Shown here: in pieces, positions 1-15,848 of the stretch
How the letters are laid out: every line of letters begins with the position of its first letter
Numbering within the stretch: the stretch's first letter is position 1
Assembly (NCBI GenBank): GCA_025463055.1
Contig: JAOAPV010000047.1
Span: 62,001 to 126,000, forward strand
Length of the DNA: 64,000 bases
Reading direction: 5' to 3'
Source: Candidatus Acidiferrum typicum
Lineage (GTDB): Bacteria > Acidobacteriota > Terriglobia > Acidiferrales > UBA7541
Notes under the pieces: generated by a model
Databases searched by the model: none
What the model was told of the DNA's origin: nothing
What the model saw: the letters and a program-made list of their open reading frames with translations, nothing else
Program-made: the position numbers and the translations under genes

Positions 1-933
1 GTTTGGTAGCGAAGGCATCAGCACAATCGGTTTTTCCCAAAGCAGAAGGCGTCCGTTCGCGTCACTACGTGGCTTCCACAGGTACCGCCCTTGTGCGTCC
101 TTGAGTCTCAGTAAACTGATTAGCGTGTTGTTGTTCATTCCCCAAAAACATTTCGGAGAGGCCAAGTATGCAGGGTCCACGCTCTGCATCAGAGTCAGGG
201 TATCGTCTAAGCTGATTGCTGTTGGAGCGGCACTGGTAGCTCCGCTGGTGGTACTTGAAATCAACGTGCTGACATTGGCCGTACCAACTCCTCGTTGAAA
301 ACGCGACGCAACAGCGGGAGTGATGACGGCTTCCTCTACGGGGAATTGCGAATCCTGAAGAAGTTCAAGGGTTGCATACATGCGACCACTTTTCCACGTA
401 GGAACTTTGCCCAGCAACAAGCGGTCAATCGTTGTAATTTCCTGCTCATTCGGGCTTGTGTTTTCGCTAACGATTGACGCGGCTACTGCCGTATCGTCAT
501 AGAGAGCAAACGTCTGAACATTGCCGTGGTCAGATTCAACCACGGTCACCACATCATCATTCCAAAGGCCGTCAGCCTGTTTCAGCGCAGCCGTCACAGT
601 GGAATAGAAATCTTGGGGCACGAAGTACCCCCCAAGTGCATCAGTGGCTACGCTCATGCCCGCGTAGGTTCGAAGCTCCCCAGTTCTAAGGTAACTGCGC
701 AAGCTTTCTCTTGCGCTGAGCACACCAACTTCTTGCGCTGCTGATACTGCTCGCGCACGGATTTCTTCATCGGTGCTCAAGCTTCCAGCTTTCAGCGCGC
801 TAATTTTTGCGAGCAAAAACTTGCTACGGTTCTGCTGGTCACTGCTCAATTTGCCCGGTGTCCGGGTCAGTGCGTCCAATTCATCGAACGCTGCACGCAA
901 TTCACTCTGCGTGCCCATAGTTGCCAGAGACAT
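1..933 (-). CDS. HK97-fold phage major capsid protein, C-terminus outside window
   Basis: The minus-strand frame is open from an ATG at 933 to the window edge, giving 311 codons without a stop. The translation reads as an HK97-type capsid subunit. A helical N-terminal stretch of about 80 residues, resembling a scaffolding delta domain, is followed by the typical entry into the fold (LRTYAGMSVATDALGGYFVP), then a region with LELLQDSQFPVEEAV and FQRGVG, which matches the spine helix and the following strand of this family. A purine-rich AAAGGAAAAG precedes the start. It is the last visible gene of a leftward phage-like gene set. The family call is from recognition of conserved segments. The remaining C-terminal part lies outside the window. 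Confidence 0.88.
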   Translation of the reverse strand, partial: MSLATMGTQSELRAAFDELDALTRTPGKLSSDQQNRSKFLLAKISALKAGSLSTDEEIRARAVSAAQEVGVLSARESLRSYLRTGELRTYAGMSVATDALGGYFVPQDFYSTVTAALKQADGLWNDDVVTVVESDHGNVQTFALYDDTAVAASIVSENTSPNEQEITTIDRLLLGKVPTWKSGRMYATLELLQDSQFPVEEAVITPAVASRFQRGVGTANVSTLISSTTSGATSAAPTAISLDDTLTLMQSVDPAYLASPKCFWGMNNNTLISLLRLKDAQGRYLWKPRSDANGRLLLWEKPIVLMPSLPN

Positions 934-1007
934 TTCTTTGCTTTTCCTTTTTGTGGTTGGGATTGTGTTCACGCCACTGCTGCCCGGTGAACGCGGGTTC
1001 TGAATTC

Positions 1008-1292
1008 TTACAGAAGCTTGAAAGCTTCTAAGCGAATACGCAGTTTTTCTTTCTCGCCGTTCGGGTCATCATCAACAACTGTTGGCTTCGCCGGTGCGTT
1101 ACTGCGCGGGGTAGTTGCCAGTATGCTGCGTGCGCTTCTAACTTCCATTCCACTTGGGAACGGGGTCAGCGAGAGTCCATTTCTCTTCTCATAAATTCGG
1201 CGCACTGCCCACGCTGGCATTGAGGGGAACTCACCCATGCCGCGCTGTGCGTGCTCTGACGCAAGTGCAGACCGCATTTCTTGAATTTGCAT
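1008..1292 (-). CDS. small phage-island protein of unknown function (94 aa)
   Basis: This 94-residue reading frame has a strong ribosome binding site (AAGGAGGAAAC) a few bases before its ATG. It lies directly upstream of the capsid gene on the same strand. The protein is hydrophilic, with a Pro/Asp-rich central part (KPTVVDDDPNGEKEK) and a basic helical end. I see no signal peptide, membrane segment or known motif. A place just before the major capsid gene is where phages often carry a scaffold or head accessory protein, but that is only positional inference. Confidence 0.6.
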   Translation of the reverse strand: MQIQEMRSALASEHAQRGMGEFPSMPAWAVRRIYEKRNGLSLTPFPSGMEVRSARSILATTPRSNAPAKPTVVDDDPNGEKEKLRIRLEAFKLL

Positions 1293-1322
1293 TCTTGTTT
1301 CCTCCTTTCTCAGATTTGACTG

Positions 1323-1700
1323 CTAAATTTTTCCCATGCGAAATAGCAACTCTCGGGCCGTGCGCCTTGCTGCTTTCTTAGCAGCTTTCGCGTCTTCTCG
1401 CCTGATGTTCCTTGCTAAGAGTCTCGCTCGCTTCTTCATCCGCTTGACTTCCGTTACCGGAACAGACATGCGATAAAATTTTCTGCTGCTGCCATCGCTC
1501 ATCCGAATATTTTTCACGGCTGAGACGGAGAGTGTGTTGTCAGCTTTGGGTTTGTCTGGCGTCCAGCCTTCTGCTGCATCGGGCAAGGGCTGGCCGTCAA
1601 CCGGAGCAGGGTCTTGGAGCAAAAGTTTTCTCCGCTTTGATTTGCTTTGCATCTGCTCGCGTTTCAACGCGCTGTGAGACTTCAGGTCTTCGGCTTTCAT
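1323..1700 (-). CDS. basic small protein of the phage island (125 aa)
   Basis: The frame is open further upstream to 1739, but the ATG at 1700 overlaps the stop of the preceding gene in an ATGA arrangement, the usual sign of translational coupling, so that start is preferred. The product is strongly basic, with Arg/Lys clusters at both ends (SKSKRRKLLL near the start and KRMKKRARLLARNIRRED near the end). This would suit nucleic-acid binding, but no recognised domain is visible. It belongs to the same leftward gene string as the capsid gene. Confidence 0.55.
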   Translation of the reverse strand: MKAEDLKSHSALKREQMQSKSKRRKLLLQDPAPVDGQPLPDAAEGWTPDKPKADNTLSVSAVKNIRMSDGSSRKFYRMSVPVTEVKRMKKRARLLARNIRREDAKAAKKAARRTARELLFRMGKI

Positions 1701-2017
1701 GCGACACCCACGCGCCGTTTCAACGCTGAAAGCTGCCAAACACTCAACATCGCTAGGGCTTGGCCGAAATGAAGATACCCAGACGTGACGCTGTTCATGC
1801 GGTGCTTTGGCCGCTCGATTTCTTGCGCCATTGCGATTACTTTTTTGTCTTCAGCCACTCGCTGCCATAGCGACCAAAAATCAGAGGCTGTGGTGTTTTT
1901 CGGAAGGAAACCGTGGCGTTCCAAAATCTGTTGGAACGTTGGTTCGTCAGCCGTTCTGCTTCTCACAGGTGCCATCGCACCAAGTCTGGGCCGCTTTTCT
2001 TTATATCTTCGTCTCAC
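1697..2017 (-). CDS. unknown phage-island protein (106 aa)
   Basis: The reading frame starts at a GTG preceded by AAAGAGA and ends in a 4-base overlap with the next gene, which supports it being real. An internal ATG at 1975 is an alternative start. The protein has a basic N-terminus followed by a helical segment (FQQILERHGFLPKN) and an aromatic patch (SDFWSLWQRV). I do not recognise the family. The position upstream of capsid genes would suit a small terminase or head-assembly factor, but nothing in the sequence proves this. Confidence 0.5.
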   Translation of the reverse strand: MRRRYKEKRPRLGAMAPVRSRTADEPTFQQILERHGFLPKNTTASDFWSLWQRVAEDKKVIAMAQEIERPKHRMNSVTSGYLHFGQALAMLSVWQLSALKRRVGVA

Positions 2018-2284
2018 TTCAAATCTCTTTCATTGCCGTTCACAGACGGATTAGCGAAAAACTATCGAAAAAAGCCCATTTTTCGATGGTAATTAGTCGC
2101 ACTAAACAGCCATTTTAGCTGTTGCAACGACCATGTTTGCGTGTAAAGCTCAGAGAATCAACCACTTAGGCCGTACGATTCCATAAGAAATCGGGCATCA
2201 TTGGGTGGATACAAACCGTGCTATCGCTAGGACCTTTGAATCGCGCCGAACGCAAATCAGACTACCCCCCTAGGGTGTGCAGCA
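2018..2284. other. intergenic gap with a hairpin
   Basis: No supported gene. Bases 2064..2072 (ATCGAAAAA) and 2079..2087 (TTTTTCGAT) are perfect inverted arms around a 6-base loop. Read on the minus strand, the hairpin is followed by AGTTTTTC, so it could be a weak intrinsic terminator separating the two leftward gene groups, or an operator for the group starting at 2017. A second small palindrome, CCCCCTAGGG, lies near 2265. Confidence 0.4.
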
Positions 2285-2473
2285 TCAGCGCGGAGACAAA
2301 CCCAAGTCATTCCACAAAAACTCTTTGAAGCCGCTGTATCGAAGCGTAGTCCAGCGCACGAACCGGTCACGCAACCTTGGCGTGCCAGACGCATAATTGA
2401 AATTGCTTTCTACGACTCGCCAAAACCAAAACTCAGTCAGGAAGCTCATCTTCCCCTTGAATGCTCTTTCCAT
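2285..2473 (-). CDS. small unknown phage-island protein (62 aa)
   Basis: A 62-residue frame with a purine-rich ribosome binding site (AGGAAGAGAAAG) just before its ATG. The protein is rich in aromatic residues and arginine (FLTEFWFWRVVESNF, TPRLRDRFVRW). It has no signal peptide and no recognised motif. It follows the 107-residue gene on the same strand after a short gap and probably shares its transcript. Confidence 0.45.
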   Translation of the reverse strand: MERAFKGKMSFLTEFWFWRVVESNFNYASGTPRLRDRFVRWTTLRYSGFKEFLWNDLGLSPR

Positions 2474-2500
2474 GTTCTTTCTCTTCCTGTCCTTTACCGG

Positions 2501-2824
2501 TCAGTGCAGATGCCTTGCGAGTGCTCCGCACCGTCTCTCATGCAGATAGGTGAAGGCTTCTTGTTCCGTTGGCCGGTCACCTTCGAAATAATCGTCAGGA
2601 ACACCAAGCTCTACGCGGTGTTCATCTAGGTGCATGTCGTATCGCGCAAACACCAGTAGATATGCGCCACGCTCGCAGACTTCAAGGCCACTACTCAGCG
2701 CCACACGCTCAAGCTCTGAGCAGATAGCTTGCAGCAGTTGCTCACCGTCTTCGGCGTCCCTGACCGCAATCAAACGTTCTGCAAACACCTTGCCACACAG
2801 TTCTTCAAAGTTGTTCAGTGTCAT
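2501..2824 (-). CDS. unknown acidic phage-island protein (107 aa)
   Basis: This frame begins five bases after the HNH endonuclease gene ends. The product is acidic and probably soluble, with a helical first half (ERLIAVRDAEDGEQLLQAI) and a segment DMHLDEHRVELGVPDDYF in the middle. No known domain is recognised. The tight spacing with the HNH gene and the shared strand support its being expressed from the same transcript. Confidence 0.5.
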   Translation of the reverse strand: MTLNNFEELCGKVFAERLIAVRDAEDGEQLLQAICSELERVALSSGLEVCERGAYLLVFARYDMHLDEHRVELGVPDDYFEGDRPTEQEAFTYLHERRCGALARHLH

Positions 2825-2829
2825 GTTGC

Positions 2830-3207
2830 TCAGTCACCCGTATTCGTTGGCACATAGACTTCGTTGCCGATGTCTCCGCTGCTCTTGTGATGGCAAGCCC
2901 GGCACAGAGCAATGCAGTGCTCAGCGTCACACAAGTCTTCCGGGTGCTCACGTAGGCCGCGCCGGTGGTGAACTTCCGTTGCAACGTTATGGCACTGCTC
3001 GCCATTCCAAACGCGTTGGCAAATCGGGTTGAGTCTCAGGAACCATTTGCGAAAGCGAAGCCATCGGGCTGTCTTATACAGCGGTCGCAGTTCGTCATCA
3101 GCGCGTTGCCGGTCATAATCGCCACGGTGCTTCTCACAATGACTTCCTTCTTTGATGAGCGTTGGACAACCAACACGCGAACAAGTTCTAAAAGCTTTCA
3201 GTCCCAC
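2830..3207 (-). CDS. HNH endonuclease of phage type
   Basis: The protein carries two Cys/His pairs near the N-terminus (CSRVGCP and CEKH), a segment LYKTARWLRFRKWFL typical of phage HNH nucleases, and the HNH core EVHHRRGLREHPEDLCD followed by CIALCRACHHKSS, so both the catalytic His pair and the structural zinc ligands are present. In tailed phages such genes sit beside the terminase and help DNA packaging. I chose the GTG at 3207, which has AGAAGAAAG six bases upstream and overlaps the stop of the preceding small gene. The frame is open back to a TTG at 3258 but without a ribosome binding site. No terminase gene is visible next to it. Confidence 0.85.
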   Translation of the reverse strand: MGLKAFRTCSRVGCPTLIKEGSHCEKHRGDYDRQRADDELRPLYKTARWLRFRKWFLRLNPICQRVWNGEQCHNVATEVHHRRGLREHPEDLCDAEHCIALCRACHHKSSGDIGNEVYVPTNTGD

Positions 3208-3344
3208 AACAAGCTTTCTTCTAATCGAGCGAGAGCGTTCTTCAACTCGGCAACCCAAGCTTGTGCTACTAGCTTGACTTCATCCGCGATGGCTACACAG
3301 GTGAGCAGCAGCGTTTCAAGGTCTTCAGACATCTGTTTCGTCAT
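3198..3344 (-). CDS. possible small helical protein (48 aa)
   Basis: A short frame starts at an ATG at 3344 and ends at 3198, overlapping the start of the HNH endonuclease gene. The predicted 48-residue protein is a single amphipathic helix (MSEDLETLLLTCVAIADEV, then WVAELKNALARLEESLLWD). Small helical proteins at this place before HNH genes are common in phages. Only the overlap and composition support it, so it stays tentative. Confidence 0.35.
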   Translation of the reverse strand: MTKQMSEDLETLLLTCVAIADEVKLVAQAWVAELKNALARLEESLLWD

Positions 3345-3979
3345 ACGTTCTTGCCTTCAAAAAGAAATTTGCGGACAGCGCAGTGACCTAAAGAGCACCG
3401 CGCCGCCGCTGACCATCGAACAAAGTTCAACCGGCCAAATTTTATGGGGAAATCGAGAGGCTCACCCGAATGAGCAGAAACGATTGCCCGGCCCAACAAA
3501 TCGCTCACAGCATGCGAAACGATTTAATGGGGAACTCAAAATTGGTGCGAGCAGAGTATCGGGCTGAAAGGCTCCTCAGACCCCTCTGGTTAGCCTATAT
3601 TCCGAACCCTGCTCGCGGTTCTCACCTGTTTGTGGTCAGGCGAAAATGGATGCGATGGCCAGCGGAGATTTGGACTCCGGGCAGACCATCGCAGAGACGT
3701 TAGCTGTTTGCGCAGCCTCACCCGGCAAGGATGCTGTCTCAAGCTTTTTTGGAAAATCTTTTGTTGGGATTTCTTTTTTCGCGGGGTCAGAATGACCACC
3801 GGCCAAATAACAGGCACTCACCGCGCAACCGGCGAGGACCTGCACAACTTAATTCGTGGGAAGTGAGCGCACGTTATGCGCACGCAGTGCAGGGCTTTCT
3901 TGCTCCGCGCAATCACACATTCACCTATATAGTGTTTTCAGTTAGGGTGCCAAACGGTATTATTTTGTCCTTCTGGTGC
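3345..3979. other. gap without a supported gene
   Basis: About 630 bases lie between the replication-side genes and the HNH group, all transcribed leftward. Short open frames exist on both strands (for example a minus-strand frame 3636..3845 with a Cys-rich hydrophobic start), but none has a ribosome binding site, a recognisable motif or good coupling to neighbours. The stretch may be a spacer or a promoter region for the HNH-capsid group, or may hold a gene I cannot identify. Confidence 0.3.
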
Positions 3980-4774
3980 TTAATGCTCCGTTCGTTCCTC
4001 TCTCTGCTGAATATCAGACAGGGAATGGCTTTCAGCTTTCGGCCTACGGACGTGGCCCATTCCATACCACTTGCGTGCCCGCTCCTTTTTCGCCTGCTTT
4101 AGCACCGCTGTGTAGAGATAAGCGCGAACGTCTTTGACTTTACCGTTCCTAATCGGCTGAATGGCTGCGTCCATGACCATGCTCACCACTTCGTCACCGC
4201 GTTTCTCATCCGTGGGTTTCAGTCCCGTTCCACGTTCCAGTGGGTCACGAATGATTGCACCGGCCATCTGTCTCAGATGTTTTTGAAACCTCTCATCGAA
4301 GAGCACCGCAAGCTGTTGCTCAGGTGTTAGGCCGTCAGGTTCCTTCGGTGGCTTCAGAGCACGTTTTGCCGCGGCCCTTTCGCGGGTTTCCCTTTTTTCC
4401 TGTGCTGTGATGCGCCGCGCCTTTTGGCGTTCTGTTTCACGTGCCTCAAGGTTTTCCAATCTAAAATCCAGAGAGTCACCATTCTTGTGAGCCACGGGCA
4501 GCGATGCGCCCAGTAAGAACTTTCCAAGCTGTGGACGCGCAGTCTTTCCAGTTGCAGGGTCAACAAATCTAGCGAAGATGTACGGAACTCGCTTAATCCG
4601 TCTCACGTTTGTTGCGTGCTTCCAAAGGTTGCCGATGGTGATGTGTCCATCTGCACTCCTGTACTGCACCTTGGCCGCGTGTGCTTTGACCCTCGCCAGT
4701 CCGGTAGCGCACAAGGTCACGGCCTTGCCGCTCTTCGTGCGTCCCACAGGAACGCTGAACACTTCGGCTGTCAT
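3980..4774 (-). CDS. protein with HNH-like and sigma-region-2-like segments (264 aa)
   Basis: Residues about 60 to 115 resemble the DNA-binding part of HNH-type homing nucleases, ending in VAHKNGDSLDFRLENLEA, which keeps the His, Asn and Asp pattern of that motif. A highly charged helical linker (QEKRETRERAAAKRALK) follows. The C-terminal third has EVVSMVMDAAIQ and DVRAYLYTAVLKQAKKERAR, which looks like region 2 of a sigma-70-family factor. What I see is motif likeness only; the function could be transcription control of the island or DNA cleavage. The start overlaps the previous gene by four bases (ATGA), so translation is probably coupled. Confidence 0.6.
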   Translation of the reverse strand: MTAEVFSVPVGRTKSGKAVTLCATGLARVKAHAAKVQYRSADGHITIGNLWKHATNVRRIKRVPYIFARFVDPATGKTARPQLGKFLLGASLPVAHKNGDSLDFRLENLEARETERQKARRITAQEKRETRERAAAKRALKPPKEPDGLTPEQQLAVLFDERFQKHLRQMAGAIIRDPLERGTGLKPTDEKRGDEVVSMVMDAAIQPIRNGKVKDVRAYLYTAVLKQAKKERARKWYGMGHVRRPKAESHSLSDIQQREERTEH

Positions 4775-5061
4775 GCCGCTACGCTTTCAACAGCGTCCTG
4801 TTTTGTCTTCCTGACGTTTGCCACCTTGCTGCAAAAACGCACTGCATGTTCCAGCGTCATCGCGCCGTTGAGTTTGGCGTTCTTTGCCGCCGTGCGCTTA
4901 ATCGCATCAACCATGCGTTCGAACGTGTGAAGGTCAAGCCACACTCCCATTTGATTCGCACCGGGGCTGAACTCTGGAAAGAGGCTGTACCAGAATTGGC
5001 AAAGGGCAGTGACTTCTTCGCGCCGCTTGTTCATCTGCTCGCGTAATTCTTGCGGCGTCAT
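4771..5061 (-). CDS. unknown protein coupled to RepA-like gene (96 aa)
   Basis: This 96-residue frame overlaps the RepA-like gene upstream and the next gene downstream by four bases each, so the three form one translationally coupled unit. The protein is soluble and mainly helical (LREQMNKRREEVTALCQFW, FERMVDAIKRTAAKNAKL). No conserved domain is recognised. Its place between a replicative ATPase and a possible regulator suggests a role in replication or its control, but that is inference from position. Confidence 0.55.
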   Translation of the reverse strand: MTPQELREQMNKRREEVTALCQFWYSLFPEFSPGANQMGVWLDLHTFERMVDAIKRTAAKNAKLNGAMTLEHAVRFCSKVANVRKTKQDAVESVAA

Positions 5062-6071
5062 GCTGCACCGCCTTTCTCAACCGGCACAGCAATGCAATAG
5101 CGTCTCGCCTTTCCATCACTTTCTGATTTCAGTTTGCCGCTACTTTCCAACTGTTGAAGTACTCTCAGCTTCAACGCCGTCTTGCCTGTCACCAACGCAA
5201 GCAGTTCGCCTTGCGTTGGATTCACTTCAACCAACAGAGCTTCTATGATTTCTTGCTCAATGCGCTCAATAGTTTTTCGTTCTCTGGCTTCGTTCCGTGC
5301 TGCCTCTTCATCTTCAACGGTTGAGCCTAAAGACATGGCTTCTCTTTCCTCATCGAAGAAGAGCAGCGTCGGTTCCATTGAAATTCCCCACCGTTGTTCT
5401 GTGCTGATGATTCGCTGGGTTCCTTGCTTGCTCAGGAAAATGTTTGTGTCAGTGCCGCCGCGAAACCCGGTGCTGCCGATTGGTGAATCTCCAACGTCAT
5501 CACTGCCGCGCTTCTTTCCGTGTGTGAGAAATTGCAGATGCAGACTGTAGGTCTTCGCTATCTGTTCCAGCTTCTCAATTACCACGGTCACTTCATCGTA
5601 GGAATCTGAATCGGCCAAACGAAGTAGTTTGCTTACCGGGTCAACGATTACCAGCTTGACCTTCGGAAGTGTTTTCAGCGTGGCTTCTAATCTCTTTAAT
5701 CCAAGCTCGCCACGGTGCGGCATTTGCTCATGCACAACATGAACGGTGCCGCGCTTCTCCGTGCAGCCCAGCTTCTTCAGGTGTTGCTGCACTACGCCCT
5801 TGGGACCTTCCAATATCAAGTACAGAACGTCACCGCAGATGGTGGGCTTCCCTAAAAATGTAGTTCCTTCGGCCACGGCTACCGCAAGTTGCCGGGCAAA
5901 TGTGCTCTTGCCGGTTTTTGGTTTTCCGCACAGCATACTCACGCCAATGTCGAGCAACAGGTCATCAACAAGGCCGTGGTATATCTCCGGGGCCGCGTTC
6001 GCAAGTTCAAGCCCGGTCTGAGTCTTGAAAGGCTGAACTTTTGACCCGTCTTTCTTCTCTTCACCGCTCAT
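5058..6071 (-). CDS. RepA-like hexameric helicase/ATPase (AAA_25 type)
   Basis: The 337-residue protein has a Walker A motif GKPKTGKST at residues 49 to 57 and a Walker B strand VKLVIVD near residue 144, with the following segment DDVGDSPIGSTGFRGGTDT typical of RecA-fold replication ATPases of plasmids and satellite phages (RSF1010 RepA/AAA_25 kind). The C-terminal part (about 265 to 330) looks like a winged-helix region. It probably unwinds DNA at the element's origin. It is the first gene of the leftward operon, and the long inverted repeat immediately upstream (6159..6297) is a candidate origin or control region. Confidence 0.8.
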   Translation of the reverse strand: MSGEEKKDGSKVQPFKTQTGLELANAAPEIYHGLVDDLLLDIGVSMLCGKPKTGKSTFARQLAVAVAEGTTFLGKPTICGDVLYLILEGPKGVVQQHLKKLGCTEKRGTVHVVHEQMPHRGELGLKRLEATLKTLPKVKLVIVDPVSKLLRLADSDSYDEVTVVIEKLEQIAKTYSLHLQFLTHGKKRGSDDVGDSPIGSTGFRGGTDTNIFLSKQGTQRIISTEQRWGISMEPTLLFFDEEREAMSLGSTVEDEEAARNEARERKTIERIEQEIIEALLVEVNPTQGELLALVTGKTALKLRVLQQLESSGKLKSESDGKARRYCIAVPVEKGGAA

Positions 6072-6158
6072 CTATTTCTTTGTCCTTTATTCGGTTTTCT
6101 GGCCCGTGTCACCCGCAAGGCCGACACTGGGTTACTACTCTTTTTTCCGTCAAACACC

Positions 6159-6297
6159 CCGCGAGCAGGAAAACGAGGAAAAGGGAAAAACAAAATTGCT
6201 TTTCCTTTTGAGAGGGAAAAAGAGAGTATTCCTAACTCTTTCTCCCTACAGCTACTTACAGGAACCGTTTCCCTTTTCCTGCTTTTCCCGCTCGCGG
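6159..6297. repeat. long imperfect inverted repeat with nested hairpins
   Basis: Bases 6159..6188 and 6268..6297 are 30-base arms that pair with only three mismatches, one strand almost all purine and the other almost all pyrimidine apart from the GC end. The 79-base loop holds a second inverted pair (AGGGAAAAAGAG and CTCTTTCTCCCT). The structure lies about 90 bases before the start codon of the RepA-like gene. It could be a replication origin, a single-strand origin or a transcript attenuator; the sequence alone does not decide. Confidence 0.6.
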
Positions 6298-6815
6298 AGA
6301 GATAGGCAGGAAAGAAAAGCTGAAAGCTTGCAGGTCATACCCTTGGGGTGACACGCGCCGGAAATGGTTCCGGTGTTTTGCTAGTTCAAAATGACGACCA
6401 TTGCACGCAACGTCCGTGGTTTTCGGCGTTCGGGTTTTTGCACGACACGAACCGTCAGCATTTTTGGCTTCTGCTCGCGTGCCGCCTTCTTTTTAATTTT
6501 CAAGTGAGTGTTATCCATTCTCGCGGGCACACATTTGGGTTCTGCCAGCGATATGACTAGGATTGGCTGCCCTAATCACTGGAATGCCAGTGGGTTTGCG
6601 GGGTAGGACTACCTCAACTCTACCCAACTATTGTACCCCAAATGACCCGTCTATGTCAATCGTTAGGTTAACAGTATTAACTAATTAACCGAAACGGCTT
6701 GGGTTGGTCAAAGCCCCGTATGGCTCTGTTCGACATCGGACAGACTCTTGTATGACCGATATGCTATAAGGCTCAATTCAAGTCCCCTATCTCAAACTTA
6801 AAGGCCCAGCCGACT
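6298..6815. other. noncoding region upstream of divergent genes
   Basis: No supported gene lies here. The region contains an AT-rich patch at 6666..6690 with inverted hexamers GGTTAA and TTAACC and an inner GTTAA/TTAAC pair, suited to a protein binding site or DNA unwinding element. An extended -10-like sequence TGCTATAAG at 6762..6770 lies about 45 bases before the plus-strand gene at 6816 and may be its promoter. No clear -35 element was found. Confidence 0.35.
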
Positions 6816-7202
6816 GTGTTCCCACCCTTTGATATATTTCGCGTTCATGATGGCGAATTAGTGTGGCAAGAAACCGCAGAAACACTCACGCAGGCTAGAA
6901 TGCGCGTTAGTATGCTGCGGCTCGCCAAGCGTGCCGACTATGTTATCTACAGCCAGAAAACCGGGCACAAGAGCATCGTTAGACTCGATGACGCTAAGGG
7001 CGAGCACCCGATTTGTCCAACACACGAAACTTTCATGGTGCCCCACAGCTTCCAGCCGTGGGAACTATCACTTGCTCAAGGAAAACTCGACGGCTTCAGA
7101 TGCCCGAACTTATCCTGCTCGACCGTCTACATTGAACCGCTCGGCGGTTTTCATTCTCTTGATGATGGCAAGCTCACACTGTTGCGGTCGCCCGAATCGT
7201 GA
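6816..7202 (+). CDS. unknown protein with a Cys-pair element (128 aa)
   Basis: A 128-residue soluble protein starting at GTG. It opens with FDIFRVHDGELVWQETAETL, a form seen in small acidobacterial proteins of unknown function, then a helix MRVSMLRLAKRADYVIYSQK. The second half has scattered cysteines (CPTHE, CPNLSCS) that could bind a metal. No catalytic motif is seen. It is transcribed away from the RepA-like operon and ends two bases before a strong hairpin, which supports a monocistronic unit. Confidence 0.55.
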   Translation: MFPPFDIFRVHDGELVWQETAETLTQARMRVSMLRLAKRADYVIYSQKTGHKSIVRLDDAKGEHPICPTHETFMVPHSFQPWELSLAQGKLDGFRCPNLSCSTVYIEPLGGFHSLDDGKLTLLRSPES

Positions 7203-7203
7203 A

Positions 7204-7242
7204 GTCAAGTGGTTTGGGTAAAAACGAACCAAACCGCTTGAC
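7204..7242 (+). terminator. hairpin after the 128-aa gene
   Basis: Bases 7204..7217 (GTCAAGTGGTTTGG) and 7229..7242 (CCAAACCGCTTGAC) pair over 14 positions with one G-T mismatch around an 11-base loop. The hairpin begins right after the stop codon of the plus-strand gene. No T-run follows, so it is either a factor-dependent terminator or an mRNA-stabilising stem. Confidence 0.5.
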
Positions 7243-7456
7243 GTGCAGCGTATGCACATTCGTTTTGATTCTAAGGCCGTCAAAATTCCCACGATGCGGA
7301 TTCTCTCGCAGCGGTCATACATCGCCTGCCAGCGCCTACCGCTGCGCGAAGCCCGGCCATCACAGACAGCAACGCGGCCCGCCGTTGACGAACCAAACTA
7401 GGCGGCAGCCACGGCAGCGGGAAGCCCGCGCCGCTTGTTCACCGGTGGAACACGGT

Positions 7457-7747
7457 CTATATCTTCACTGTCAAACGTTGAATCAACTTCTTAGCAACGC
7501 TCCGGGCTTCTGCTTTGACCGTTGTGGTGCGCAGCATCACACCGCGCTTCACGCTGACCGGCAGCCCAAGGTCTGTTAGAGAAATGCGCAGCGCACGCTC
7601 CGCTGAAGCAGCGACTGCACCCTGAATTTCTGCCGCCGTCAGCCCCTTACCCAGCAACGCGTCAACCAACGGTTCGAGAATATCTCCTGCACCATCCTTC
7701 GCAATGAACAGCGCAACATTTTCTTCGCTCATGAATGCGGTTTTCAC
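7457..7747 (-). CDS. unknown small protein of the island (96 aa)
   Basis: The frame begins at a GTG with GGAGAG seven bases upstream; an ATG lies five codons further in. The product is a small soluble alpha/beta protein with a helical middle (LVDALLGKGLTAAEIQGAV) and a basic C-terminus (AEARSVAKKLIQRLTVKI). Nothing in it matches a family I know. It lies alone on the minus strand between two plus-strand genes of the island's right flank. Confidence 0.5.
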   Translation of the reverse strand: MKTAFMSEENVALFIAKDGAGDILEPLVDALLGKGLTAAEIQGAVAASAERALRISLTDLGLPVSVKRGVMLRTTTVKAEARSVAKKLIQRLTVKI

Positions 7748-7956
7748 TTTGGTTCTCTCCGGTGCCCGGCTGGGCTATTTCTTAGGAACGCGCTGATGAT
7801 GAACCGCAGGGACGTGGGCAGCAATAGAACGAAACTCACACACAGGATTGAAACCATGACTTGAAACACAATTTGTATATGTCAAGTGGTATCGTTGCTC
7901 GGAACTAACCGCATCTGATAACGTCACATGGCTTCAACGCAACACTGAGGGACAGT

Positions 7957-8244
7957 ATGGCGAACTATGTTGCTAGGGTCGAACTTCATTCCGCCACTCG
8001 GGACGATTACGAGCGGCTGCACGCAAGCATGCAGCGTAGAGGATATTACAGAGCCATCCGTGGGTCCGATGGAAAGGCGTATCAGCTTCCAACAGGAACG
8101 TATGTCGTTAGGGATACCAACAGTTCGCTCGACAATGCTCTTAACGCTGCACAAGAAGCCGCAAACGAAATAGGAAAACAGTCATGGGTTTTCGTTGCGG
8201 ATTGGAGTAGTGCCACTTGGTTAGGGCTGTCTATCGTGGGATGA
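7957..8244 (+). CDS. GhoS-like (DUF2622-type) small protein
   Basis: The 95-residue protein reads ANYVARVELHSATRDDYERL, then GYYRAI, YQLPTGTYVV, a helix ALNAAQEAANEIGKQ and a final strand region WVFVADWSS. This alternation of strands and helices and the YQLPTG turn match the small ferredoxin-like proteins annotated as DUF2622/GhoS; GhoS of Escherichia coli is an RNase antitoxin of a type V toxin-antitoxin system. Likeness to that family is from memory of motif order, and RNase function is not shown here. It has GAGGG before the ATG and is followed after 19 bases by the TIR gene, so the two are probably co-transcribed and functionally linked. Confidence 0.65.
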   Translation: MANYVARVELHSATRDDYERLHASMQRRGYYRAIRGSDGKAYQLPTGTYVVRDTNSSLDNALNAAQEAANEIGKQSWVFVADWSSATWLGLSIVG

Positions 8245-8263
8245 AGAAATTCGGGAGATGCAA

Positions 8264-9145
8264 ATGCGAGTATTCCTAAGTTGGTCAGGCGCGTTGAGCC
8301 AGAAGGTGGCACTTGCCTTCAGAGAGTGGCTACCGTCTGTCATTCAGTCACTAGAACCGTATGTGTCTTCGGAAGACATCGACAAGGGGTCACGTTGGAG
8401 TGCGGAATTGGCCCAAGAACTAGATAAATCTCGTTACGGAATTATCTGCCTCACGAAAGAGAACGTGAGTAAACCTTGGATTAACTTTGAAGCAGGTGCA
8501 TTGTCGAGAAGCATTGAAAAGACGACATTAGTCGCGTTCTCACCAGCCGTCTCCCCCTTCCTTTTTGACCTGAAGTCATCGGAGCTTGAGGGACCATTTA
8601 CGCAGTTCCAATACGTAGTAAACGAACGCGATGACATATACAAGCTTGTTTCCAGTATCAACGGCAAAGTGGATGTGAATCAGCTTTCGGCTGAAATGAT
8701 TGATAAAGCTTTTGAGAAATGGTGGCCCGAACTCCAAACGGCGCTGGCAAGAATCGCAGCAGAGGTACCCGCGACGGTTACCAAAACACCCACAAGAAAG
8801 CCAGAGGAAATACTGGATGAATTGCTCGAATTGGTTCGGGCACAGCAAAGGTTAATGATTTCGAAGGAGGACCTAAGCAGTTCGTTTGGCTCACTTCGTG
8901 GTGACATTGTGCAAGCTCTAGGAGGGAGTATCTTCGGCAGCGGCCTTGGAGCAACCGGGATGGTGAACTTTCGTAGTCTACTTGGAGGACGGGGCGGCGG
9001 ATTTACCTCTGAAATTCCCGGCGCGACGGTGCTCCACTCCGGTTCGTTGCCGAGTGGTTCGCCACCGAGTGGAGCGGGGCACACAGCGCCAAGCGTCGAT
9101 AGTCAGCCAGAACCGAAAAAGGCCAGCACCGACAAAGCGCAGTGA
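8264..9145 (+). CDS. TIR-domain protein, probable NADase effector
   Basis: Residues 1 to about 150 form a bacterial TIR domain: RVFLSWSGALSQKVALAF at the first strand and helix, the BB-loop-like VSSEDIDKGSRW, then YGIICLTKENV and WINFEAGALS, in which the Glu after Trp is the expected catalytic residue for NAD+ cleavage. Residues about 170 to 220 form a helical region, and the last 60 residues are Gly/Ser/Pro-rich and probably disordered. The ATG at 8264 is chosen because GGGAG lies six bases upstream. There is no signal peptide or membrane segment. TIR NADases act in phage defence by depleting NAD+; the island setting fits this, but no partner such as ThsA or Argonaute is present. Confidence 0.8.
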   Translation: MRVFLSWSGALSQKVALAFREWLPSVIQSLEPYVSSEDIDKGSRWSAELAQELDKSRYGIICLTKENVSKPWINFEAGALSRSIEKTTLVAFSPAVSPFLFDLKSSELEGPFTQFQYVVNERDDIYKLVSSINGKVDVNQLSAEMIDKAFEKWWPELQTALARIAAEVPATVTKTPTRKPEEILDELLELVRAQQRLMISKEDLSSSFGSLRGDIVQALGGSIFGSGLGATGMVNFRSLLGGRGGGFTSEIPGATVLHSGSLPSGSPPSGAGHTAPSVDSQPEPKKASTDKAQ

Positions 9146-9482
9146 GAGTGATGATTCTTGTGTACAACCTGTGTACAAAATAGGCGTTTTGAAGGGCCTG
9201 AAAATGGACCTAAGCAACGCAGAATCAACAACAGCATCCTGAGCTACAGGCCCATGAGCAACGCCAAATTTTAACATGGGTTAGAGCAGTTCGCACATAT
9301 TCGGCAAGCCGCCGGAGCAACACCACAACATTCCGCGAACCCTGCCCGAGAGCGCCACGAGAAGGTGTAATAGAACAGGCGGACGTAACATTTGAAACTT
9401 GGCGAGGGCGTTCCTGCATCTTAGTTCCAGAGAACCGGGCTGACGTGTCTTTTCGAAGTCGATGACCACTTTTGGAGGAACG
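9146..9482. other. island right-flank gap
   Basis: No supported gene lies between the TIR gene and the outer membrane protein gene. Short frames on both strands lack ribosome binding sites and family likeness. The gap contains the tRNA-like sequence described separately (9194..9253) and may include the right end of the mobile island, since genes from here on are ordinary chromosomal ones. Confidence 0.4.
9194..9253 (-). other. tRNA 5'-end copy / tRNA-like sequence, possible attachment site
   Basis: Read on the minus strand from 9253, the first 15 bases GGGCCTGTAGCTCAG are identical to the 5' end of the intact tRNA-Arg at 36323, including the acceptor and D-arm start, and the three bases TCA four to two positions before them also agree. 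The segment ends with CAGGCCC at 9200..9194, which can close a 7-base-pair acceptor stem. At about 60 bases with no anticodon or T arm it is not a working tRNA. It may be an attachment-site core or tRNA remnant at the island's edge. Confidence 0.5.
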
Positions 9483-10130
9483 ATGCGATACCGCTTGCCG
9501 CTGTTGCTCATGTTCACGTTGTGCTTCGCTGCAGGTTCGCCGGTGTTCGGGCAGTGGCGCGACCTTACGAAATGGGAAGTGGCGCCGTTTGTGGGATACG
9601 AAACGGAAGGCTCCTACCCGGTGACAAATTCGTTCACCATAGACAGGTTGCGAGTGGATGGCGGGCTAAGTTACGGCACTTTCATTGATTACACGCTGAC
9701 GGAGAACTCGCAAGCGGAATTCATGTGGAGCAGAAACAATACGAGTTTTAGCGAGCGGGATGCGGCAACAGGAACGTACTCGAAAGCTTTTAATTCGGAT
9801 TTTGACCAATTCTCGTTTGGCTTTCTCTACATGCTGAAGAACAGCGAAAGAAAGCTGCGGCCGTTTATTGCCGGCGGCATTGGCTTTTCGCACGAATCCA
9901 ACAGCGGAGGCAATTCGAATCATACTTTGCTCGCGTTTAATCTGGGCGGCGGAGCGAAATACGAAGTGACGCGGCACTTTGCCTTGCGCGGAGATCTGCG
10001 GTGGCTGCCCTCGCGTGCCAACAAAACTCCGGCGGTGCAGTGCGATCCGTTTGGAAACTGTTTCCAGCAGAACGTTTCCAATTATCTGCAGCGGGTGAAC
10101 TTCACTGGCGGGATTGCGTTTCGGTTTTGA
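9483..10130 (+). CDS. outer membrane beta-barrel protein
   Basis: The 215-residue protein starts at the ATG at 9483 (GGAGG seven bases upstream) with a Sec signal peptide (RYRLPLLLMFTLCFAAGSPVFG). The mature part alternates short hydrophobic strands with turns (VAPFVGYE, SYGTFIDYTL, FDQFSFGFLYML, RPFIAGGIGF, LAFNLGGGAKYEV, ALRGDLRWL) and ends in a C-terminal aromatic residue after GIAFRF, as outer membrane barrels do. The likely fold is an eight-stranded OmpA/OmpW-type barrel. The substrate or role is not known; it stands alone between the island and the thiolase gene. Confidence 0.8.
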   Translation: MRYRLPLLLMFTLCFAAGSPVFGQWRDLTKWEVAPFVGYETEGSYPVTNSFTIDRLRVDGGLSYGTFIDYTLTENSQAEFMWSRNNTSFSERDAATGTYSKAFNSDFDQFSFGFLYMLKNSERKLRPFIAGGIGFSHESNSGGNSNHTLLAFNLGGGAKYEVTRHFALRGDLRWLPSRANKTPAVQCDPFGNCFQQNVSNYLQRVNFTGGIAFRF

Positions 10131-10230
10131 CGCGCGAGCGGCGGCCGATCAGAGCAAAAAAGCGCCGAAATCGAAAAAACGTCTATCATTGATAATGAAG
10201 AGCTGAGCTTGTGGATAGGCTCCCTTCTGC

Positions 10231-10262
10231 CAACGCTTGTGTGGCAATCACGACAAGCGTTG
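10231..10262 (+). promoter_or_regulatory. hairpin just before the thiolase gene
   Basis: CAACGCTTGT at 10231..10240 and ACAAGCGTTG at 10253..10262 form a perfect 10-base-pair stem, extended by GTG/CAC across a small bulge. It ends about ten bases before the AGGAG ribosome binding site of the thiolase gene. This could be a 5' leader structure affecting expression or a terminator for upstream transcription, although no T-run follows. Confidence 0.4.
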
Positions 10263-10284
10263 CTCGCCCTTTAGGAGATTGCAC

Positions 10285-11502
10285 ATGCCTGAAGCCGTGA
10301 TCGTTTCCGCCGTGCGCACGCCAGTTGGCCGAGCGTATAAAGGGTCGCTGCGCGCCACGCGACCGGACGACCTCGCCGCGCTCGCCATAAAAGAGGCTCT
10401 CGCGCGCGTTCCTGGCGTGGACGCGAAAGAAATCGAGGACGTGATCCTCGGCTGCGCTATGCCCGAGGGCGAACAAGGCATGAACGTCGCGCGAATCGCT
10501 GCTCTGCGCGCCGGTCTCCCCGTCGAAACCTCGGCGATGACCATCAACCGCTTCTGCTCCTCTGGGCTGCAAGCGATCGCGCTTGCTGCCGAACGCATTC
10601 GGAGCGGCTCGGCCGAAATCATCATCGCCGGCGGCACGGAATCGATGTCGCTCGTGCCCATGGGCGGCAACAAAATTTCTCCCAATCCCTGGCTGGTTGA
10701 CCATTATCCTGACGCGTACATCAACATGGGACTCGGCACAGAAAATATCGCCCGCAAGTTCGGCATTACCCGAGAACAGGCTGACGAATTCTCCGCCAAT
10801 TCGCACAAGAAGGCTCTCGCCGCTATTGCCGCGGGGAACTTCAAGGAGGAAACCATTCCTGTCGAAGTGAGAATTACTTCACTTCCGAACGGAAATGGGA
10901 ACGGCGCTTCCGCAAAATCGAAGTCTTCGCCAAAGCCTACGACGCAAACCTTCCAATTCGAGACGGACGAACTTCCCCGGGCCGATACTTCGCTCGAAGT
11001 TCTCGCCAAGCTAAAACCGGCGTTCCACGCGAAAGGCACGGTTACCGCGGGAAACAGCTCGCCCATGAGCGACGGTGCCGCCGCCGCGGTGGTGATGAGC
11101 GAAGCTCGCGCCAACGCGCTCGGCCTGAAGCCGCTCGCGCGTTTCGTCGCGTACGCAACGGCCGGATGTCCTCCCGAGGAGTTCGGCATCGGCCCGGTCT
11201 TCGCGATTCCAAAGGCTCTGAAGCTCGCTGGCCTTTTGTTGAACGATATCGCCGTAATCGAGCTTAACGAAGCTTTCGGCGCGCAATCGCTCGCGGTGAT
11301 ACAGCAAGCCGGCCTGGACGCCGCGCGCGTCAATCCCAACGGCGGCGCGATCGCCCTGGGACACCCGCTAGGCTGCACCGGGGCCAAACTCACCGCTACG
11401 TTAATTCGCGATCTTCAGCGCAAAAACGCCCGCTACGGCATGGTCACCATGTGCATCGGCGGAGGAATGGGCGCCGCCGGCATCTTCGAGCGCCTTTCGT
11501 AG
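10285..11502 (+). CDS. fadA: acetyl-CoA acyltransferase (thiolase)
   Basis: The 405-residue protein is a complete thiolase. The nucleophilic cysteine lies in [14 protein letters not shown], the catalytic His in [17 protein letters not shown] and the second Cys in [14 protein letters not shown]. The segment [17 protein letters not shown] is typical of 3-ketoacyl-CoA thiolases of beta-oxidation, which cleave 3-ketoacyl-CoA to acetyl-CoA and a shortened acyl-CoA. The ATG at 10285 has AGGAG eight bases upstream and starts the usual [14 protein letters not shown]. Use as a degradative FadA or as a biosynthetic acetyl-CoA acetyltransferase cannot be separated by sequence alone; the acyl-CoA dehydrogenase at 14019 supports beta-oxidation. 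Confidence 0.92.
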
Positions 11503-11597
11503 CCTGCAAATGAAGCTAGCACCGCAGAAATGAATGCTTCGCACACCTGTGGAGGTACACCTGCGACGCTCCGCGAGTTCTTCGCGTTTAACTTGTC

Positions 11598-12452
11598 ATG
11601 CAGGCACCAGCCAAGTACGATTCCGACTTCATGAAACCAGCCCTTGCCCTTATCTGCATGGCGTTATGGTGCTCCGCAACGCGCGCCCAAGCGCCCCAAC
11701 TACCGGCGCCTAATCTTCCGCTCCAAAACCCAACTGCGCCGCAAGGACCTGTGCCCATCAGCGACGAACCCCACCACCGTCTGGTGCTGCAAAACGATTT
11801 CGCGCGTGTTTACAATGTGACCGTTCCGCCGCTGGACAGCACGCTTTTACATCAGCACGATCTCCCGTATCTGTATGTTGTGCTGGGCCTCGCGGACATC
11901 ATCAACGCTATCGTCGGCAAGCCTGAACTCCATCAAGTGCTGGAAGATGGGGAAACGCATTATTCGTCCGGGCATTTCGCGCACATCGTGCGGACGGATT
12001 CCGGCATGCCGTTTCATAACATCACTATCGAACTGGTCCGTCCTCAGGGCACACCGAAGAATCTCTGCAAAGATGTGCTGCCGGCTCCGCTGGATTGTCC
12101 GGAACAGCGGCCGGCCATTAACGGCAGCAAGCGCAAAAAAGCTACTCCACAAGTTGCGTCGGAAGATGTTCCCTATTTTGAGACGGATGAGGTTCGCGTC
12201 GATCTGCACAAGGTGTCCGGCGGGAATGATTACGTTGACGCGGCGCCGAAGGTCGATGCCCTGCTCGTCGGGCTGACCAATTCCAATCTCGACGTAAATC
12301 TCGGAGGCGAACACATTGGATTTCTGCACGGCGGCGACGTGCTATGGCTGCCTGCCGGCCAGCCTCGCCGAATCGTCGATTTCCTTGGGACACACTCCGG
12401 GTTCCTATTAATTTCATTTAAGGACAGCGCCGCGCGTCCGACCGCCCAGTAG
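11598..12452 (+). CDS. secreted cupin-like protein of unknown function
   Basis: The 284-residue protein has a Sec-type signal sequence starting at an internal Met (KPALALICMALWCSATRAQA), so the ATG at 11631 may be the true start. The body shows two beta-rich halves, each with cupin-like features: PLDSTLLHQHDLPYLYVVLG in the first and GGDVLWLPAGQPRRIVDFLG in the second. The first half keeps two closely spaced His residues that could bind a metal. It is probably periplasmic. No enzyme family is recognised, and the gene has no clear operon partner. Confidence 0.6.
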   Translation: MQAPAKYDSDFMKPALALICMALWCSATRAQAPQLPAPNLPLQNPTAPQGPVPISDEPHHRLVLQNDFARVYNVTVPPLDSTLLHQHDLPYLYVVLGLADIINAIVGKPELHQVLEDGETHYSSGHFAHIVRTDSGMPFHNITIELVRPQGTPKNLCKDVLPAPLDCPEQRPAINGSKRKKATPQVASEDVPYFETDEVRVDLHKVSGGNDYVDAAPKVDALLVGLTNSNLDVNLGGEHIGFLHGGDVLWLPAGQPRRIVDFLGTHSGFLLISFKDSAARPTAQ

Positions 12453-12659
12453 CGAACGGGAGCGCTCGTCGAAGCGCTACGAGCATCTCCCTTCCAGAAT
12501 CTCTGCCCTCTGAGGTTTTTTTGCACGTCACCCATATAACGCGGACTCGTTAATCTTTGAGAGACGCGATGAGGCTCGTGCGCACCAGGTCGATGCTGGC
12601 AATATCGTTGCTCGGGCGCATAGAATTGGCCTGCGAATACGGATGGGGCGCGGACTGCT

Positions 12660-13487: not shown

Positions 13488-13499
13488 GACGCACGAGCT

Positions 13500-13892
13500 A
13501 TGGAAGCGATGATCGAAAAGGAAAACGCAGAGAAGCGCATGGACGAAATTATGGGCCGACTGCTGCGCACCGGCGTGATTTTGGCAGCAGTTTTTGTGCT
13601 TGCCGGGGGAGCTGTATACATGGCGCAGCACCCGACACCGGTTACGGACTATCGTGTATTTCAAGGTGAGCCGGCAGAACTGCGCACGGTTTCGGGGATT
13701 TTCCACGAGGCGCTGGCGCTTCATGGGCCAGGGCTGATTCAGTTTGGGTTGTTGATCCTGATTGCTACGCCAATTGCGCGAGTGGCGTTTTCGGTGGTGG
13801 CCTTCCTGTACCAGCGGGATTGGACTTATGTGATGGTTACGCTGGTTGTTCTTAGTCTACTGTTCTATAGCCTTTTAGGCGCCGGTGGGTGA
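13500..13892 (+). CDS. DUF1634 membrane protein
   Basis: A 130-residue integral membrane protein with three hydrophobic segments (LLRTGVILAAVFVLAGGAVYM, IQFGLLILIATPIARVAF after a periplasmic loop, and MVTLVVLSLLFYSLLGAG). The pattern of one segment, a loop with YRVFQGEP, then two more segments is that of DUF1634. Members are regularly found beside TauE/SafE exporters, as here with a 12-base gap, and are assumed to act with them. The function of the family is unproven. Confidence 0.8.
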   Translation: MEAMIEKENAEKRMDEIMGRLLRTGVILAAVFVLAGGAVYMAQHPTPVTDYRVFQGEPAELRTVSGIFHEALALHGPGLIQFGLLILIATPIARVAFSVVAFLYQRDWTYVMVTLVVLSLLFYSLLGAGG

Positions 13893-15824: not shown

Positions 15825-15848
15825 CAAGAACGATTCAAGGAAACCCGA

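What the first reader, a model, noticed from the sequence alone, without database searches (positions are those of the whole stretch)
1..6071. Compact island with capsid and replication genes but no visible portal or terminase
A RepA-like ATPase, an HNH nuclease and an HK97-type capsid protein are joined by seven or eight small unknown genes. Between the HNH and capsid genes, where terminase, portal and protease are normally found, only small proteins are present. This may be a capsid-encoding phage satellite or an unusual prophage.
Basis: partly seen in the sequence, partly recalled or inferred. Interest (0 to 1): 0.55.

Follow-up and report, generated by a model that had tools for sequence, protein, structure and literature searches.

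The report
Phage satellite carrying only a shell
A 16-kilobase mobile island inserted at a tRNA gene of a soil Acidobacteria-type bacterium carries a viral shell gene but no recognisable genes for the DNA-packaging motor, portal or tail, so it probably borrows those from another virus; relatives in other genomes suggest that such 'shell-only' parasites of viruses form a lasting lineage.

Summary
Extending the contig left shows no prophage morphogenesis module, but a tyrosine integrase against a tRNA-Ile whose first 16 nt recur at window 9238-9253: a 16,147-bp island. Inside: integrase, possible defence cargo (TIR), a RepA-like ATPase, a packaging-type HNH and a full-length HK97-type capsid. 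Pfam, PHROGs and local profiles found no portal, large terminase or tail gene.

It recurs. 22 of 37 capsid genes in 30 genomes of the class (own included) have no HK97-type portal or TerL within 10 kb (some at contig ends). Six other such elements have direct-repeat ends, 9.6-16.3 kb. The window's capsid lies in a supported clade of nine: eight without portal or TerL, one undecided (8 of 8), though only three show both ends. This argues against recent prophage decay. Five of them carry a small terminase without a large one.

Best reading: a phage satellite supplying its own shell, or a shell-resizing subunit, and borrowing motor, portal and tail from a helper. It works like lone-capsid PICIs (EcCICFT073, SaPIbov5) but its capsid is unrelated to EcCICFT073's: a new variant of a known kind. 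Helper and particle are undemonstrated.

The parts
1..972 (-). major capsid protein, HK97 type, cut by the window edge (full gene L003:7782-8972, 396 aa; 113 residues precede the capsid domain, helical in a low-confidence model, as in an HK97 delta domain)
   Evidence: PF05065 E 5e-25 over residues 114-377; phrog_10 major head protein; nearest solved chain R. capsulatus GTA capsid, E 2.4e-10; model of the window part pLDDT 56
1008..1292 (-). 94-aa ORF directly upstream of the capsid gene, unknown
   Evidence: ORF; only weak PHROG matches, E 0.06 or worse
1323..1739 (-). 138-aa basic protein, unknown; a relative lies just upstream of the lone capsid in L042
   Evidence: phmmer E 4.3e-5 to L042:8737-9099; no family
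1697..2017 (-). 106-aa ORF, unknown
   Evidence: ORF, no family
2501..2824 (-). 107-aa ORF directly after the HNH gene, where phages keep the small terminase; not recognisable as one
   Evidence: no family; no match to a local TerS profile
2830..3258 (-). HNH endonuclease of the kind found beside terminase genes
   Evidence: phrog_144 E 1.1e-17; also phrog_4581 (terminase small subunit) E 1.7e-4; 33 of 39 relatives outside the island, near-copies included, lie within 1.5 kb upstream of TerS/TerL
3980..4774 (-). 264-aa protein with a weak HNH_3 match
   Evidence: PF13392 E 0.0013, 18.8 bits, below the 24.8-bit cut-off
4771..5061 (-). 96-aa protein next to RepA; the pair recurs in L166
   Evidence: phmmer E 4.2e-4 to L166:10500-10796, directly after a RepA relative
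5058..6071 (-). RepA-like AAA_25 ATPase, presumed replication protein
   Evidence: PF13481 E 1.8e-25; relatives in 47 of 399 class genomes, own included; of 15 stretches fetched around relatives, 12 have an integrase match and none a capsid match
6072..6815 (.). gene-poor stretch between the two divergent halves; candidate replication origin
   Evidence: 46-nt imperfect inverted repeat 6143-6188 / 6268-6313; function inferred
6816..7202 (+). 128-aa ORF, unknown
   Evidence: ORF; no family
7457..7747 (-). 96-aa ORF, unknown
   Evidence: ORF; no family
7957..8244 (+). 95-aa protein with a weak GhoS-like match, just before the TIR gene
   Evidence: PF11080 17.8 bits, below the 21-bit cut-off
8258..9145 (+). 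TIR-domain protein, defence-type cargo
   Evidence: PADLOC TIR-TM E 2.2e-85; PF13676 E 9e-8
9238..9253 (.). right end of the island: copy of the first 16 nt of tRNA-Ile, reverse strand
   Evidence: exact 16-bp direct repeat of contig position 55107-55122; shuffles reach 13 bp at most

Best explanation
The feature is a 16.1-kb integrative phage satellite at tRNA-Ile. Its integrase excises and inserts it, and a RepA-like ATPase copies it. Once a helper phage is active, its own HK97-type capsid protein makes or resizes the shell, while portal, TerL motor and tail come from the helper. The island's HNH nuclease, a relative of HNH proteins found beside terminase genes, may help the helper's terminase act on satellite DNA. 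Shown by sequence: end repeats, integrase, capsid, HNH, ATPase, no recognisable TerL, portal or tail gene, recurrence, and a clade of such capsids. Inferred: excision, replication, helper dependence, particle formation, and each protein's role.
For: Ends: tRNA-Ile repeat, integrase beside it, G+C step. Content: capsid, HNH and RepA-like ATPase. Of the eight gene-strand ORFs of 250 aa or more, six have families over a cut-off (integrase, SDH/ClpP-like, DUF5677, capsid, AAA_25, TIR); the other two (363 aa with sub-cut-off zinc-ribbon matches; 264 aa with a weak HNH_3 match) are shorter than the whole portal (386 aa and more) and TerL (526 aa and more) frames of the reference loci. Recurrence: 22 of 37 PF05065 places in 30 genomes, own included, have neither PF04860 portal nor PF03354 TerL within 10 kb. 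In 12 of these genomes none of the 8 Terminase_6N places lies on a contig with a listed capsid place. Six further elements without portal or TerL have direct-repeat ends: L012, L041, L061, L062, L064, L065. Lineage: the window capsid sits in a starred clade of nine (8 without portal, 1 undecided), 8 of 8 once unclear and long rows are dropped (99/96). The no-portal label needs 6 changes against a shuffled mean of 16.4, 0 of 500 as low. L011, L012, L053, L075 and L076 carry a P27-type TerS but no TerL, as expected if the motor is borrowed. EcCICFT073 has the same layout.
Against: No helper, induction, excision product or particle is shown. None of the 7 genomes of this family among the 30 searched, own included, has a PF04860 portal or PF03354 TerL, so no resident HK97-type helper is visible; Terminase_6N genes over the cut-off are in 5 of the 6 family genomes searched for them, own included (contig C89). 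The island has no recognised TerS or S78 head protease; cos/pac sites were not searched for. The att repeat is short and lies at the tRNA's 5' end. In two of 11 same-genus loci the right-flank gene is beside tRNA-Ile, but with the tRNA in the other orientation, so no clean empty site was found. Only three of the nine clade members show both ends (window island, L012, L041); L013, L040, L075 and L076 are on short contigs. Relatives were gathered with queries from this clade. The small genes have almost no relatives. Single-genome data give no measure of selection.
Confidence: 0.77

Rival explanations
1. Decayed prophage or cf-PICI: an ordinary element lost TerL, portal, protease and tails by deletion, and the capsid is a leftover.
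For: The order HNH ... capsid is that of an ordinary HK97-type head module with the middle missing. No HK97-type helper is visible in the genome.
Against: Capsid, integrase, HNH and RepA frames are open. The capsid clade of reduced elements is deep (about 30-36% identity of A1 members to the window capsid), with different tRNA sites and genera. Of the 20 loci labelled without portal (window island included), 11 keep a P27-type TerS and 8 an S78-type protease match, a selective loss.
Confidence: 0.1
2. Capsid used only as a Ccm-like interference or resizing subunit: it co-assembles with the helper's capsid protein to make small heads and cannot form a shell alone. This is a sub-case of the best explanation, which leaves the choice open.
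For: SaPIbov5 Ccm is a capsid homologue that needs the helper capsid protein (PMC5052747 section 16; PMC8569155 abstract). The island has no S78 protease match.
Against: The protein is a full-length capsid protein with a long N-terminal region. Sister elements carry their own head proteases (L012, L053, L076; ClpP-type in L041), which suggests that they mature a shell of their own.
Confidence: 0.35
3. Complete small phage with unrecognised portal, motor and tail genes.
For: Many island genes have no known family; the largest without a family over a cut-off is 363 aa, not far below the shortest whole portal frame seen (386 aa).
Against: TerL frames of whole matches are 526 aa and more, and no unassigned island ORF approaches that; the 363-aa protein shows zinc-ribbon matches and no portal similarity by hhalign; 16 kb leaves little room for a tail module.
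Confidence: 0.05
4. Encapsulin-like or defence compartment: the shell protein was domesticated for a cellular or antiviral role on an island with defence-type genes (TIR; SDH/ClpP-like and DUF5677 genes nearby).
For: The TIR gene is defence-type; most other capsid-adjacent cargo has no relatives in the other loci.
Against: In relatives the neighbours are TerS and head protease, which are packaging genes; the element has an integrase and end repeats, and the clade lies among phage capsids.
Confidence: 0.05

Closest known systems
EcCICFT073 (PICI of E. coli CFT073; identified by me as NC_004431:1377930-1388654 from its integrase, capsid and head-decoration genes)
   Same: Island with integrase, replication gene and a lone capsid gene; no terminase, portal or tail gene in the record's annotation of that stretch.
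   Different: Its capsid is PF03864 (lambda gpE type) with a head-decoration gene, not PF05065; BLASTP and the local capsid profile find no relation. It has a D5-type primase, not AAA_25. It is reported to be packaged in full-size helper capsids (PMC6092414 passages).
SaPIbov5 / cos-type SaPIs with Ccm
   Same: Satellite with an HK97-fold capsid homologue (PMC5052747 abstract and section 16); that it has no portal or TerL of its own is recalled.
   Different: Ccm has 82 residues ahead of the fold and cannot replace the helper capsid protein; it occupies the pentamers (PMC8569155 abstract). A Staphylococcus element. Its sequence was not compared here.
PmCI172 (Pasteurella PICI)
   Same: Carries a capsid homologue; small heads are seen (PMC6092414 and PMC6893505 passages).
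   Different: Sequence not compared here; the role of its capsid gene is not shown in the passages read.
cf-PICIs
   Same: Own capsid, HNH, no tail genes.
   Different: cf-PICIs encode major capsid protein, protease, portal, connectors, TerL, TerS and HNH (PMC10690885 passage); here portal and TerL are not found.
Ordinary HK97-type head modules of viral contigs
   Same: HNH and capsid proteins are homologous and in the same order; portal found in 66 of 80 viral contigs, and 12 of the other 14 begin within 1.4 kb upstream of the capsid.
   Different: TerS-TerL-portal-protease, normally between HNH and capsid, are replaced by four small unknown ORFs.

Membership tests
cf-PICI | own major capsid protein | tested here: met
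   PF05065 E 5e-25
[quoted passage not shown]
   no PF04860 in the whole genome; no portal or connector match in the island better than E 0.29
cf-PICI | large terminase subunit | tested here: not met
   no PF03354 in the whole genome; the one Terminase_6N gene is on another contig; no match in the island
cf-PICI | small terminase subunit | tested here: inconclusive
   no P27-type TerS found; the HNH protein matches the TerS family phrog_4581 with E 1.7e-4; an unrelated TerS among the small ORFs cannot be excluded
cf-PICI | head maturation protease | tested here: inconclusive
   no S78-type protease; the SDH/ClpP-like protein L003:3368-4633 matches head maturation protease profiles weakly (phrog_1684 E 2.4e-5, phrog_53 E 1.7e-4)
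cf-PICI | packaging HNH endonuclease | tested here: met
   phrog_144; 33 of 39 relatives sit beside terminase genes; role not tested
lone-capsid PICI (EcCICFT073 / SaPIbov5 type) | site-specific integrase and att repeats | tested here: met
lone-capsid PICI (EcCICFT073 / SaPIbov5 type) | capsid homologue without portal, TerL or tail genes | tested here: met
lone-capsid PICI (EcCICFT073 / SaPIbov5 type) | homologous capsid gene (common descent) | tested here: not met
   PF05065 here, PF03864 in EcCICFT073; no similarity; Ccm and PmCI172 were not compared
lone-capsid PICI (EcCICFT073 / SaPIbov5 type) | D5/primase-type replication gene | tested here: not met
   AAA_25 ATPase instead; sister elements L011 and L075 do have D5_N proteins
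PICI (general) | phage-dependent induction, packaging into phage-like particles | not testable with these tools
   needs culture or virome reads
ordinary prophage | TerL, portal and tail module | tested here: not met
   left flank read to the tRNA and beyond; no such genes recognised
encapsulin | cargo-loading peptide and cargo enzyme beside the shell gene | not tested
   -

The most novel reading that the evidence does not exclude
A lasting lineage of 'shell-only' satellites in Terriglobia (Acidobacteriota) builds entire heads from its own HK97 capsid protein, with or without its own TerS and head protease, around the helper's portal and motor. This would be a division of labour between the known extremes: cf-PICIs make everything but the tail, and Ccm-type satellites only resize helper heads. 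A side branch (L060 in this same genome, and L076) adds its own tape measure protein, so those satellites would bring exactly the two parts that set head size and tail length.
Probability: 0.3. Interest if true: 0.72.

Novelty: new variant of a known kind. Interest (0 to 1): 0.55.

Why it matters
Satellites differ in how they deal with the helper's head: leave it, shrink it, or make a complete head of their own. A phylogenetically stable set of elements that keeps the shell gene (often with TerS or a protease) and no recognisable motor or portal is an intermediate. It makes testable how little of the head a satellite must encode to monopolise particles, and whether an HK97 shell can accept a foreign portal and motor. 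It also extends capsid-bearing satellites to a soil phylum: in the one literature search made for it (12 of 86 papers listed) no listed paper held both 'Acidobacteria' and 'phage satellite'.

Tried and rejected
Complete prophage beside the window: rejected after reading the left flank. TerS among the small ORFs: local TerS profile (HMMER max mode) and hhalign gave nothing; the hhalign run against TerL did not work (it repeats one stale line) and is not used. Clean empty site in relatives: the right-flank membrane-protein gene lies beside tRNA-Ile in two of 11 same-genus loci but in the other orientation, so it is only suggestive. Helper in the same genome: PF04860 and PF03354 absent; a Terminase_6N gene on contig C89 (L181, 27 bits, cut-off 22) has a neighbouring ORF that matched nothing in Pfam. 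Structure of the capsid: only the window's truncated part was folded; mean pLDDT 56, pTM 0.28, so no fold search was made. The pooled Pfam and PHROGs scans took 104 of 119 listed ORFs of 200 aa or more and show only the 25 most frequent of 112 and 119 families, so rare families could be hidden; ten suspicious proteins were scanned singly with PHROGs, and seven from such loci with Pfam. Rows dropped before counts: from the first tree, capsid pieces under 200 aa and copies of 80% identity or more (114 to 55 rows; undecided L040, L059, L096); from the second also L042, L063 and L067 and the undecided rows (49 rows). With only the seven elements that have end repeats against the 32 with portal, the label needs 2 changes (no shuffle control for this count). 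The 22 of 37 count includes places near contig ends or on short contigs (G230, G208, G228, G354, G019) and one prophage stretch with tail-like genes (G336, L059). End repeats were not found for the tRNA-Val in L011, nor in L042, L053, L063, L066 and L067; L047 has only 12 bp; L013, L055, L056 and L060 have no tRNA in the stretch and were not tested for repeats. Tycheposons and VEIMEs were seen only as mentions; that some carry capsid genes is recalled and was not checked, and it limits the novelty claim. The cf-PICI paper and a paper on PICIs of Gram-positive cocci were not held.


Full report
WHAT WAS CHECKED. The window is contig C49:62001-126000 of a 5.33-Mb, 146-contig genome, 98.9% complete. 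The capsid gene is cut by the window edge; with the left flank it is 396 aa and matches PF05065 with E 5e-25.

THE ISLAND. Reading left, the main genes on the same strand are a 363-aa protein with sub-cut-off zinc-ribbon matches, a DUF5677 protein (280 aa), an SDH/ClpP-like protein (421 aa), a DUF4145-like protein (209 aa, weak match) and a tyrosine integrase (437 aa), then tRNA-Ile. The first 16 nt of the tRNA recur at window 9238-9253, just after a TIR-domain gene. The longest match of the tRNA stretch in 200 mononucleotide shuffles was 13 bp. The island is 16,147 bp with G+C 0.516, against 0.583 and 0.576 in the flanks. A repeat at the 5' side of the tRNA is less usual than at the 3' side (recalled), but L062 shows the same arrangement.

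WHAT IS MISSING. No island protein matches portal, TerL, tail or S78 protease families beyond chance-level scores. Local profiles built from portal and TerL genes of this class's prophages, and from a TerS and protease of related elements, give best E-values of 0.57, 0.028, 0.077 and 0.021. The HNH protein also matches a small-terminase family (phrog_4581, E 1.7e-4), and the SDH/ClpP-like protein matches head-protease profiles weakly, so TerS and protease functions stay open. Size supports the absence of motor and portal: the largest island ORFs without a family over a cut-off are 363 and 264 aa, whereas whole portal and TerL matches in relatives lie in frames of at least 386 and 526 aa. What the island keeps of a head module is its two ends: an HNH whose relatives lie, in 33 of 39 cases, within 1.5 kb upstream of TerS or TerL, and the capsid.

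RECURRENCE. The capsid finds relatives in 30 of 399 sampled genomes of the class, own included. In those 30, PF05065 gives 37 places; 15 have a PF04860 portal within 10 kb, 11 a PF03354 TerL, and 22 neither. Some of the 22 lie at contig ends and one has tail-like genes. In 12 of the genomes Terminase_6N was also sought: 8 places, none on the contig of a listed capsid place. Elements without portal or TerL matches and with direct-repeat ends at a tRNA: L012 (16.3 kb, 23 bp), L041 (9.8 kb, 49 bp), L061 (9.9 kb, 61 bp), L062 (10.1 kb, 37 bp), L064 (9.6 kb, 20 bp) and L065 (10.2 or 12.7 kb, 26-27 bp); misses are listed under Tried and rejected. Of 20 loci so labelled, window island included, 11 carry a P27-type TerS and 8 an S78-type protease match, none a TerL match. 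L041 has a ClpP-type protease directly after the capsid (PF00574 E 5e-30). By contrast, 66 of 80 viral-contig loci with related capsids have a portal; 12 of the other 14 begin within 1.4 kb upstream of the capsid, and the last two, L075 and L076, are of the reduced kind.

LINEAGE TEST. On a tree of 55 capsids (20 without portal, 32 with, 3 undecided) the window capsid lies in a starred clade of nine, eight without portal and one undecided; the no-portal label needs 6 changes against a shuffled mean of 16.4, 0 of 500 as low. Without long and undecided rows (49 rows) the clade is 8 of 8 (99/96) and the label needs 5 changes against 14.2, 0 of 500. The label is not one clade, so several origins or reversals are implied, but the window's lineage looks old and stable, which recent decay would not give. 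Caveats: relatives were gathered with queries from this clade, and only three of the nine members show both ends.

OTHER MODULES. RepA relatives occur in 47 of 399 class genomes, own included. Of 15 stretches fetched around relatives, none has a capsid match and 12 have an integrase match; the other three (L169, L171, L179) are on contigs of 9-14 kb. The integrase-RepA backbone therefore seems to exist without a capsid too. L166 repeats the order RepA - 96-aa gene. The 138-aa gene has a relative just upstream of the lone capsid in L042.

HOW IT PROBABLY WORKS. See the best explanation: excision at tRNA-Ile, replication by RepA (a 46-nt imperfect inverted repeat lies in the gene-poor stretch), own capsid protein, helper portal, motor and tail. 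The helper-dependent steps are inference. No PF04860 portal or PF03354 TerL is found in this genome or in the six other genomes of its family among the 30 searched, while 5 of the 6 family genomes searched for Terminase_6N have one; the helper is probably an incoming phage or of another type.

AGAINST WHAT IS KNOWN. It is not a cf-PICI, which carries portal, TerL and TerS (PMC10690885 passage). It works like satellites with a capsid homologue of their own: SaPIbov5 Ccm (PMC5052747 abstract and section 16; PMC8569155 abstract), and EcCICFT073 and PmCI172 (PMC6092414 and PMC6893505 passages). I looked at the annotated EcCICFT073 region: same layout, but its capsid is PF03864 and unrelated by sequence, so that capsid was recruited separately. 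Eight searches of an open-access library listed no paper whose title or abstract start describes lone-capsid satellites in Acidobacteria; the lists are capped, subscription papers and preprints are mostly not covered, and the tycheposon and cf-PICI papers themselves were not read.

VERDICT. Observation confirmed, interpretation supported, mechanism inferred; a new variant of a known kind.

Noticed in passing
L060 (same genome, contig C85:27501-47500), 6530-15929: A second capsid gene without portal or TerL match, with an integrase, a tape-measure-like protein (phrog_8462 E 5.7e-32) and a glycosyltransferase-like ORF (by eye). Its capsid groups with three others of the reduced kind, apart from the window's clade.
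   Followed up: partly
L076 (viral contig, 8,374 bp): TerS, capsid, protease, tape measure, glycosyltransferase-like ORF (by eye) and integrase start, no TerL or portal match; L061 and L067 also have long ORFs that look like tape measures by eye but match no family.
   Followed up: partly
window 7957-9145: TIR-domain gene of the PADLOC TIR-TM type preceded by a small GhoS-like ORF (below cut-off): possible pair at the island's right end.
   Followed up: no
L043 (G347), about 1861-18326: 16.4-kb island with 27-bp tRNA-Lys repeats carrying portal, protease and capsid but no PF03354 TerL; L046 (15.1 kb) is similar. Its SDH/ClpP-like gene beside the capsid is a relative of the one in the window's island.
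   Followed up: partly
L190, L191, L194, L195: The membrane-protein gene right of the island lies beside tRNA-Ile in two same-genus loci and near 50-54 bp tRNA-Ile pieces in two others: this tRNA-Ile may be a repeated integration site.
   Followed up: partly
L040 (G208), 8790-10442: Head protease and capsid in one 550-aa frame, in the window capsid's clade; the contig ends about 400 bp downstream.
   Followed up: no
L059 (G336), 438-11047: Prophage stretch with TerS directly followed by a shortened capsid and tail-like genes (by eye) but no TerL or portal match, possibly an internal deletion.
   Followed up: no
window 36323-36399: tRNA-Arg (CCT), the only tRNA in the window; no island was looked for there.
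   Followed up: no
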